From positions 87,745-151,744 of the forward strand of contig JAQTZV010000012.1 of the NCBI GenBank assembly GCA_028687585.1: a stretch of DNA of 64,000 nt, read 5' to 3'. The notes under the pieces are model-generated. The model was given only the letters and a program-made list of their open reading frames with translations, had not been told where the DNA came from and did no database searches. This DNA comes from Desulfuromonadaceae bacterium (GTDB lineage Bacteria; Desulfobacterota; Desulfuromonadia; Geobacterales; Pseudopelobacteraceae). The position numbers and the translations under genes are program-made. Shown here piece by piece: positions 1,269 to 3,865 of the stretch (within the stretch, counting starts at the first letter, position 1; each line of letters starts with the position of its first letter).

Positions 1269-2339
1269 TCATACCCCTCCTTCGCGTCTGGTTCCTATGT
1301 GGTGTCGAATTGCATCTATTAATTCTTGCGCTCTGCCCTTCACATCCTGATCACGGAGGTCGATGTATCGAATGTCGCGCAATATAGGTGGGATCTCCGT
1401 GTCCTCTAGCAGAATTGGGAGGACCATCGCTCCGCGGTCAGCTTGAAGTTGCCGAGAAATAATGGCGTTGAGTTCAGCCCGAGGCCATGGTTTCCCCAGC
1501 GAGCTTGAAGACATGAAAAACGCAAGAAAGTCGGCAGAATCAAGCCCACGATCAATACGCTCTCGGAGACTATCGCCCCATCGGATTTCAGAGAGATCGA
1601 GCCACACATTTATTCCGGCTGCACGGAGATACTCAGCAACTTCCGTGACAATCTTCTTGTCTTCGTGCGAGTAGCTAAGAAAAACCGTAGGAGGTCTCCC
1701 ACCCACATCGGTCAGAAGCGAGGTCACCGTACGACGCACTGCCGATAGTAACTTATCCTCTGCAATACCTTGCCCAAGAGCTCCCATTAAAATTTCTGAG
1801 ACTTCAGCCATCATGGATTCAAGAGACGGCTGGGTCGCGGATTTGCCTTCTAGTTGAGCTTCCTTTATGGACTGAACAGTCCTTGAAATGTCCGCTGAAA
1901 CCTGGAGAGCGAGGTCGTTCGGATCAGAGAACTGGGCGACTGTATGACGCTCACAGAGAATAGATTTCCAATGCTCAAGCCGACGCAAATTGTCTGGGTC
2001 TCGCTCTATAAACTTAGGCAGCACAGGAACTTCATCACTTCGTAGATAAACTAGGCATGGCTTCCCCAAACGATGCCCTTCCTCATATTCAGCTTCCGAG
2101 AATGAGATTTCCCTGCCAGGGACAAGTGAGCCATATCTGTGACCGACAATCACAACGAGGAGATCACTTCGCCGAACCTCTTCCAAACAAGTCTCTATTG
2201 CTTGGTTAGCACGTGCCCCAAAAAACTCCATAGAATCGTGCTGAAGTTGGAGTTTACGAATTGCACTCAATATTTTCAGACGTTCATCAGTGAGGTCAGC
2301 GTAGGTGCTGCATAGAAAGACTGTCAGGCTATTTTTCAA
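1269..2339 (-). CDS. DUF4062-TIR domain protein
   Basis: N-term VFLCSTYADLTDERLKILSAI...DLLVVIVGHRYGSL (DUF4062-like); C-term PTVFLSYSHEDKKIVTEVAEYLRAAGINVWLDLSEIRWGDSLRERI (TIR). Confidence 0.85.
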   Translation of the reverse strand: MKNSLTVFLCSTYADLTDERLKILSAIRKLQLQHDSMEFFGARANQAIETCLEEVRRSDLLVVIVGHRYGSLVPGREISFSEAEYEEGHRLGKPCLVYLRSDEVPVLPKFIERDPDNLRRLEHWKSILCERHTVAQFSDPNDLALQVSADISRTVQSIKEAQLEGKSATQPSLESMMAEVSEILMGALGQGIAEDKLLSAVRRTVTSLLTDVGGRPPTVFLSYSHEDKKIVTEVAEYLRAAGINVWLDLSEIRWGDSLRERIDRGLDSADFLAFFMSSSSLGKPWPRAELNAIISRQLQADRGAMVLPILLEDTEIPPILRDIRYIDLRDQDVKGRAQELIDAIRHHIGTRREGGV

Positions 2340-2359
2340 TTGAAGTACCTCTTGTCTGT

Positions 2360-2415
2360 GGCCAACGGCACGGCGTGACCTGCGCAGCGATGTCTGCCAT
2401 ACTTAGTTGTTATTG
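2360..2415 (-). other. degenerate attC-like site
   Basis: Minus strand: CAATAAC...GGCAGACATCGCTGCGCAGGTCACGCCGTGCC...GTTGGCC; imperfect palindrome directly 3' of the SEFIR ORF. Confidence 0.45.
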
Positions 2416-2416
2416 C

Positions 2417-3865
2417 TCATGGCCGGATGCATAGCTTGTCATAACCACTCAACGTTTTAACATTCAGTGTCTCATAGTCCCATGAAGGCACCCTCAGCTC
2501 TTTTTTATCAAAAGCTTCAAAGATAGGTGCAAGATCATTTTTTGTATCTATATCAAGAAGTGTTTTAACTCTTTCAAAATATTTTACAGACTGACATCTG
2601 GCAAAAATTTCGAATGCCGCATAATGCCTATCCGCATAGATAAGTGTTTCAGGCCACCAGTTCTGTTGCTTGTTATCTTTTATGGAAGTCAGACAACTCC
2701 TTAAGTAGAGTATAAAGTCTGTCTGCATTACCTCATGAAACTTAAGTCCAGATACTTTGCATCGTTGCTCAAGAAGGTCCGCACGTAATGATAGCCGTCC
2801 AAGTTTTTGTCTCTCGTTTCTGCGCTCAATTGATTTCAGATAGTTTCTGAAAACCGTAAAAGAGACCATTACCTCTCGACCGTGATCTGCATTTCTTTCA
2901 ACATAGTAGTACTGTTGAATCAAATATCTGGCGCCATCATATTTTTCGTATCTTATCAGCGCCGTTAATGCATACAAAAACAGTTCGTGAATAATGTATT
3001 TGAAGTTATCAAAATCCCAATCTGAGTACCCCCTCGCTTCCTTTGGGCAGTACATATATGGAATTAATCGTTCAAAAAAACGATGAAGTTGTTCTCCTCC
3101 ATCTATTGAGTCTCTATACTGTGCAATTGCAAGAAATACCTCTATTGCTTCGTTGCGGTAAGGTAGGAATTTTTCAATATTATCAACTACAAGATCATCA
3201 AACTCTTGCTCATTCTGAGTTATGCGAAATGCCTCAAGATTTTTTACTATTGTTTCTAAATATTCTTCTATTGCCCCTTTTGCATAATCTTTACCTGACT
3301 TTATAGATTCAATTGCTCGCTTCTGTTTTACGGTAGTGCCTAAAGATAATTGGTCAGTTTCAGATAAAAATGAAGGCATTGACCCTATTTTAGGCTTAAC
3401 GTACAGTGGTTTGTCGTATACCCATCTCAATAACTCTTCATATCTTATTGCGTAAGCGTCCGGATCAGAGAAATCAATATAGATCCTAGATTTGTAATAG
3501 ACAGGCAAACATGGTTTTCCGTCTTCAGTTCTTTCAACGACGACAGCAACAAACTTATTCTGGTTCTGCTTATTATAGATTTCTGGCGATATTATCTGCG
3601 TTTCAGTACCCACGCCGCCGCTTCTACCGTTAGCCTTCTCCGAATAAAGCTTGTCACATATGATAGCTACTTTTTTTATTTCTGGATCGGTAACCATTTT
3701 CTCCATAAAAGCATGAGCATCATTCCCTTCCTTTAAATCCCATTTATCCAGAACAACATCAACACCTGCATCGGTAAGTTCTGTGGCAAGGGTAAGAACC
3801 CATTGCTCATGTTCTGGAGTTGACCAACTGTACGAAATGAATAATTTAGGTGGAATCTGTTCCAA
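2417..3865 (-). CDS. SEFIR domain protein
   Basis: KLFISYSWSTPEHEQWVLTLATELTDAGVDVVLDKWDLKEGNDAHAFMEKMV is SEFIR-like; TTG start at 3865 preceded by AAGGAG; the longer ORF start (3925) lies in the attC. Confidence 0.8.
   Translation of the reverse strand: MEQIPPKLFISYSWSTPEHEQWVLTLATELTDAGVDVVLDKWDLKEGNDAHAFMEKMVTDPEIKKVAIICDKLYSEKANGRSGGVGTETQIISPEIYNKQNQNKFVAVVVERTEDGKPCLPVYYKSRIYIDFSDPDAYAIRYEELLRWVYDKPLYVKPKIGSMPSFLSETDQLSLGTTVKQKRAIESIKSGKDYAKGAIEEYLETIVKNLEAFRITQNEQEFDDLVVDNIEKFLPYRNEAIEVFLAIAQYRDSIDGGEQLHRFFERLIPYMYCPKEARGYSDWDFDNFKYIIHELFLYALTALIRYEKYDGARYLIQQYYYVERNADHGREVMVSFTVFRNYLKSIERRNERQKLGRLSLRADLLEQRCKVSGLKFHEVMQTDFILYLRSCLTSIKDNKQQNWWPETLIYADRHYAAFEIFARCQSVKYFERVKTLLDIDTKNDLAPIFEAFDKKELRVPSWDYETLNVKTLSGYDKLCIRP

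What the first reader, a model, noticed from the sequence alone, without database searches (positions are those of the whole stretch)
1269..3865. Two TIR-superfamily genes (DUF4062-TIR and SEFIR) as neighbouring cassettes
TIR and SEFIR domains are recurrent effectors in bacterial immune systems. Here a DUF4062-TIR fusion and a SEFIR protein with a large alpha-helical C-terminal region sit side by side in an integron array with a TAC module. This fits integrons acting as mobile stores of anti-phage functions. The ~340-aa C-terminal region of the SEFIR protein matches nothing I recognise.
Basis: partly seen in the sequence, partly recalled or inferred. Interest (0 to 1): 0.7.

Follow-up and report, generated by a model that had tools for sequence, protein, structure and literature searches.

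The report
bSEFIR and double-TIR defence integron cassettes
Two neighbouring movable gene cassettes in a bacterial chromosome encode probable "suicide" anti-virus enzymes: one belongs to a known family (bSEFIR), and the other joins two different candidate NAD-cutting immune domains in a single protein, a rare combination I did not find described.

Summary
In an integron (IntI at 6255-7679, cassettes running leftward on the minus strand) two adjacent cassettes encode a SEFIR protein (2417-3865) and a DUF4062-TIR fusion (1269-2339). Four attC-like junctions beat shuffles. One refinement: no attC separates the TIR gene from the 210-aa gene at 338-970, so these two share a cassette.

The ~340-aa helical C-terminus of the SEFIR protein is part of the known single-gene antiphage family bSEFIR (PADLOC, residues 1-477, E=1e-120). 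Several relatives sit among phage genes.

The DUF4062-TIR protein is the less ordinary half. A May 2026 preprint shows DUF4062 to be a TIR-like NADase (Swarozyc). Here it is joined to a canonical TIR domain, and the Swarozyc portal-sensing AUX domain is absent. Both presumed catalytic glutamates (E84, E289) are invariant in five relatives, most beside restriction, TIR or nuclease-like genes. The fusion is rare: 2 of 395 same-phylum genomes, against 45 with any DUF4062.

Integrons as antiphage stores are already published. Verdict: a known system plus a new domain arrangement of known effectors. NADase activity and phage defence are inferred, not shown.

The parts
2417..3865 (-). bSEFIR gene, 482 aa, TTG start; SEFIR domain aa 7-123, helical C-terminal region to about aa 477; candidate catalytic E88 (from conservation only)
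   Evidence: Pfam SEFIR 60.1 bits; PADLOC bSEFIR residues 1-477, 402 bits, E=1.1e-120; E88 invariant in 5 of 5
1269..2339 (-). DUF4062-TIR fusion gene, 356 aa, TTG start; DUF4062 aa 7-87 (candidate catalytic E84), helical linker about aa 140-212, TIR aa 219-336 (W285, E289)
   Evidence: Pfam; AF2 model pLDDT 77; invariant residues; KpSwz match
338..970 (-). 210-aa gene in the same cassette as DUF4062-TIR, own promoter-like site at 1041-1013; plasmid homologues annotated as ribbon-helix-helix proteins
   Evidence: No attC between it and the TIR gene; promoter-like TTGACA-17-TATACT, 11 of 12 matches; homologues; no Pfam match
4334..4396 (-). attC-like site between TAC module and 124-aa cassette
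   Evidence: 3 of 1000 shuffles as good; fold z=-0.94
3882..3939 (-). attC site between 124-aa cassette and bSEFIR; R'' pairs 8 of 8 with its own cassette start near 4343
   Evidence: 0 of 1000 shuffles; fold z=-2.1
2360..2412 (-). probable attC site between bSEFIR and DUF4062-TIR cassettes (weakest of the four)
   Evidence: 6 of 1000 shuffles as good; fold z=+0.67, i.e. no support from folding
253..324 (-). attC site ending the cassette that carries DUF4062-TIR and the 210-aa gene
   Evidence: 1 of 1000 shuffles as good; fold z=-1.7
6255..7679 (+). integron integrase IntI, 474 aa
   Evidence: TIGR02249 357.8 bits, cut-off 265; related integrases in 32 of the 58 genomes searched, own included
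4449..5623 (-). toxin-antitoxin-chaperone cassette: HicA, HicB, SecB-like
   Evidence: Pfam; SecB match just below cut-off

Best explanation
The two cassettes most likely encode two independent abortive-infection NADases kept in a chromosomal integron. The SEFIR cassette is bSEFIR: its helical C-terminal region senses an infection cue and the SEFIR domain then destroys NAD+. In the DUF4062-TIR protein two TIR-type domains are joined by a helical linker; a phage cue probably drives oligomerisation, and the canonical C-terminal TIR (W285/E289), the DUF4062 domain (E84), or both hydrolyse NAD+. Shown here: gene and cassette anatomy, match to the bSEFIR family, conservation of candidate catalytic residues, rarity of the fusion, and defence-type or phage surroundings of relatives. 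Inferred: NADase activity, trigger, oligomerisation, division of labour between the two domains, and expression in the host.
For: bSEFIR profile over residues 1-477 and SEFIR systems reported to deplete NAD+. DUF4062 proven as TIR-like NADase in KpSwz and TEP1 (PMC13174449). The window protein matches KpSwz (E=2.5e-12 as a profile) and keeps the glutamate invariant in 28 of 28 DUF4062 proteins. The TIR half is closest to the NADases AbTir and BtTir with W285 and E289 invariant in 5 of 5. Relatives of the fusion lie beside a type II restriction-modification pair, another TIR gene or a DUF4365 gene; relatives of bSEFIR lie among phage genes. attC junctions.
Against: No activity was measured. The neighbourhood evidence rests on four fusion loci without a background control. 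The AF2 model has a modest overall pTM of 0.45, so the relative placement of the two domains is unknown. No sensor domain is recognised in the fusion protein. Cassettes far from the integron promoter may be silent (PMC12409362).
Confidence: 0.6

Rival explanations
1. The DUF4062-TIR protein is a one-chain signalling relay: one domain makes an ADP-ribose-type messenger, and the other domain or another gene product responds to it, as in Thoeris.
For: Both candidate active sites are conserved; the Swarozyc preprint notes that DUF4062 proteins with additional enzymatic domains may work in more complex ways (PMC13174449); a relative sits in tandem with a second TIR gene.
Against: No ThsA-like SLOG or SIR2 partner beside the gene in the window or in the neighbours scanned; the curated Thoeris ThcB4 model is far below its cut-off (25.5 against 220 bits).
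Confidence: 0.2
2. Only one of the two domains is catalytic; the other is a regulatory or oligomerisation domain that keeps the enzyme off until infection.
For: TIR domains need ordered assembly to be active, and in KpSwz the TIR-like dimers are held in an inactive form (PMC13174449); the fusion lacks the KpSwz AUX domain, so some other part must regulate it.
Against: Candidate catalytic glutamates of both domains are invariant among the five relatives, which is not expected of a decayed domain, although five sequences are few. This reading is compatible with the best explanation and differs only in detail.
Confidence: 0.3
3. bSEFIR and DUF4062-TIR act together as one two-component system.
For: They adjoin in the array.
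Against: They lie in separate cassettes; relatives of each occur without the other in the neighbourhoods read; bSEFIR is a single-gene system in PADLOC.
Confidence: 0.05
4. The cassettes are silent cargo that no longer serves defence in this host.
For: Cassettes far from the integron promoter are thought to be weakly expressed (PMC12409362); promoter-like sites in the region are no more frequent than in shuffles and none is strong directly upstream of either gene.
Against: Intact reading frames and conserved active-site residues argue for selection on function, at least before capture.
Confidence: 0.15

Closest known systems
bSEFIR single-gene antiphage system (PADLOC PDLC03957; Millman et al. 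2022, cited from memory)
   Same: Full-length profile match including the C-terminal region; N-terminal SEFIR; single gene
   Different: Lies in an integron cassette; trigger and activity of this member untested
Swarozyc (DUF4062 TIR-like NADase; KpSwz, PDB 10wc; PMC13174449)
   Same: N-terminal DUF4062 with the conserved glutamate; found near defence-type genes
   Different: No C-terminal AUX helix-turn-helix/winged portal-binding domain; a canonical TIR domain takes its place
Bacterial TIR NADases AbTir and BtTir (PDB 7uxu, 7uwg, 7uxr)
   Same: C-terminal domain has the same fold (TM-score 0.84 to 7uxu) and the WxxxE motif
   Different: These structures carry no DUF4062 domain
Integron-borne antiphage cassettes (Darracq 2025; Kieffer 2025, as summarised in PMC12409362)
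   Same: Compact one- and two-gene defence candidates between attC sites near an integron integrase
   Different: Different host and different cassette contents; no functional screen here

Membership tests
bSEFIR | SEFIR domain at the N-terminus | tested here: met
   Pfam SEFIR 60.1 bits against 23
bSEFIR | Full-length match including the C-terminal region | tested here: met
   PADLOC PDLC03957, residues 1-477, 402 bits
bSEFIR | NAD+ depletion and phage protection | not testable with these tools
   Reported for other members; needs an experiment
Swarozyc | DUF4062 domain with the catalytic glutamate | tested here: met
   71.7 bits; E84 invariant in 28 of 28; equivalence to KpSwz E97 is inferred from the alignment
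Swarozyc | C-terminal AUX (HTH/winged) portal-sensing domain | tested here: not met
   C-terminus is a TIR domain; the KpSwz match covers only the N-terminal 185 residues
Swarozyc | Portal-activated NADase activity | not testable with these tools
   Needs an experiment
Thoeris | ThsB-type TIR plus ThsA-type effector gene next to it | tested here: not met
   No SLOG or SIR2 gene among the cassette neighbours scanned; Thoeris ThcB4 model far below cut-off
Integron gene cassette | Gene bounded by attC sites downstream of an intI gene | tested here: met
   IntI; attC-like junctions; the SEFIR|TIR site is weak
Integron gene cassette | Cassettes can be excised and re-inserted | not testable with these tools
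   Needs an excision assay

The most novel reading that the evidence does not exclude
DUF4062-TIR is an undescribed, rare class of antiphage protein with two different catalytic TIR-type domains in one chain, where one domain's activity or product controls the other (a self-contained two-stage NAD+ system) and no separate sensor domain is needed.
Probability: 0.2. Interest if true: 0.65.

Novelty: new variant of a known kind. Interest (0 to 1): 0.42.

Why it matters
If the double-domain protein is an active defence, it shows that DUF4062 and TIR, two branches of one NADase superfamily, can work in one chain without the Swarozyc sensor, and it gives a small, testable protein for asking how such enzymes are switched on. 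The bSEFIR cassette would add another known system to the list of integron-borne defences. The rest is expected from published work.

Tried and rejected
A first attC scan that required R'' to pair with R' of the same junction gave no hits, and gave chance-level hits when loosened; pairing R'' with the start of its own cassette worked. Rfam gave nothing of use. No full-length DUF4062-TIR relative was found in viral contigs, plasmids or phages. Fold search of the SEFIR model added nothing beyond 5y8e, and its helical-repeat matches are not significant. Fold search of the DUF4062-TIR model showed only TIR-half matches plus poor long superpositions in its top 50; KpSwz was reached by sequence only. 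Considered and rejected: a two-cassette system, Thoeris membership, and strict Swarozyc membership. Searches for 'bSEFIR' in the paper library found nothing, so Millman 2022 is cited from memory.

Full report
What is there. The window is part of one contig (C23:87745-151744) of a 5.47 Mb genome. An integron integrase gene lies at 6255-7679(+) (TIGR02249, 357.8 bits against a cut-off of 265). Genes run away from it on the minus strand: a 136-aa gene, a toxin-antitoxin-chaperone module (HicA, HicB and a SecB-like chaperone just under its cut-off), a 124-aa gene with a hydrophobic N-terminal segment, the SEFIR gene, the DUF4062-TIR gene, a 210-aa gene, and further genes to the left of the window. 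An HTH_3/Gp49 toxin-antitoxin-like pair there and a strong attC-like hairpin at C23:84780-84855 (z=-5.2) suggest that the array continues for several kilobases beyond the window.

Cassette structure. In an array, the R'' box of a cassette should pair with the cassette's own start. Using that rule, the junctions TAC|124aa, 124aa|SEFIR, SEFIR|TIR and 210aa|next score better than nearly all shuffles (3, 0, 6 and 1 of 1000 as good); for the first of these the cassette start was not known and a fixed R'' score was used. The TIR|210aa gap does not (609 of 1000). The 124-aa cassette has a perfect 8-base match between its start and its R''. The SEFIR|TIR site is the weakest because its predicted DNA hairpin is no better than shuffles. 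So SEFIR is a one-gene cassette, and DUF4062-TIR shares a two-gene cassette with the 210-aa gene, which has its own promoter-like site.

The SEFIR protein. The SEFIR part is close to the solved prokaryotic SEFIR 5y8e. An AF2 model from five sequences shows a mostly helical C-terminal region, with good confidence only in part of it, and a fold search found no meaningful match for it. Same-phylum relatives are few (5 of 395 genomes, own included). Several relatives sit with phage genes: a Pseudomonas luteola plasmid with P2-type portal, capsid and terminase genes plus HicAB and HigA (52% identity), a Leptospira plasmid with a baseplate gene, an IMG/VR contig, and a gene beside a terminase small subunit match. 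SEFIR systems are described as depleting NAD+.

The DUF4062-TIR protein. DUF4062 was shown in a 2026 preprint (PMC13174449) to be a TIR-like NADase family; KpSwz depletes NAD+ when its C-terminal AUX domain binds the phage portal. The window protein matches KpSwz in its N-terminal part (E=2.5e-12 as a profile; 4.6e-6 as a single sequence). The solved KpSwz chain reads SFTEKAFDYA, which I read as carrying the E97A change used for those structures, since the nearest-looking relatives here read SFTEKEYDYA. That position is E84 in the window protein and is invariant in 28 of 28 DUF4062 proteins. The equivalence to E97 is an inference. The C-terminal half is a canonical TIR closest to AbTir and BtTir, with W285 and E289 invariant in five of five fusion proteins. 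The AF2 model (pLDDT 77, pTM 0.45) gives two Rossmann-like domains joined by helices. No AUX domain is recognised. Residue numbers count the TTG start as residue 1; alignment A1 and its model lack that residue and number one lower.

Rarity and surroundings. Full-length relatives were found in Billgrantia, a Brocadiaceae bin, Desulfocapsa and genome G301 (51-57% identical in alignment A1). In 395 same-phylum genomes the fusion occurs in 2 and any DUF4062 in 45. Of 28 DUF4062 proteins scanned, only these two carry TIR; that set follows the best-scoring loci with G301's fusion added on purpose, so it is illustrative. Neighbours: an EcoRI-type methylase plus a GmrSD/HNH nuclease (Desulfocapsa), another TIR gene 18 bp upstream (Brocadiaceae), a DUF4365 gene (G301), and an OLD-like AAA gene with a TPR-S gene further off (Billgrantia). 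This points to defence, but on four loci without a background control.

What it most likely does. Both proteins are best read as abortive-infection NADases. For bSEFIR this follows from family membership. For DUF4062-TIR it follows from the two component families and the intact candidate active sites. Which domain acts, and what triggers it, is open. Thoeris membership was tested and not met, and strict Swarozyc membership fails on the AUX domain, although the protein may work in a similar way.

Novelty. Integrons as stores of antiphage systems are published (Darracq 2025, Kieffer 2025, summarised in PMC12409362), and bSEFIR is known. The DUF4062-TIR arrangement was not found described in the papers searched; the Swarozyc preprint mentions additional enzymatic domains without naming TIR among them in the passages read, and its supplementary figure could not be read.

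Noticed in passing
window 338-970: The 210-aa gene sharing the DUF4062-TIR cassette has homologues (about 37-39% identity) on many Klebsiella, Acinetobacter and other plasmids, one beside an Abi-family gene and one near a DNA methyltransferase and BrnTA. Function unknown; no Pfam match.
   Followed up: partly
window 3941-4315: A one-gene cassette encodes a 124-aa protein with a hydrophobic N-terminal segment and no family match above cut-off; its cassette ends pair perfectly.
   Followed up: no
G000:C27:17522-17995 (L014): The same genome has a second, shorter SEFIR protein (246 aa) that keeps the GGVGxE motif, downstream of a pentapeptide-like ORF.
   Followed up: no
G000 contigs C41 and C27: Two further IntI-like genes in this genome, each with one stop codon inside the match, beside the intact one in the window. 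Related integrases occur in 32 of 58 genomes searched, which suggests a long-resident chromosomal integron in this group.
   Followed up: no
window 6255-6728: IntI carries an N-terminal extension of about 158 residues before the region matched by the integron-integrase model; many related integrases share it.
   Followed up: no
G000, contigs C1, C23, C34, C59: The genome has seven DUF4062 matches in all, several in very long frames (1118-1591 aa).
   Followed up: no
L009:1219-2520: The G301 fusion protein carries an extra C-terminal stretch with a weak Lrp/AsnC ligand-binding match, below its cut-off; the Billgrantia relative is also longer at its C-terminus.
   Followed up: no
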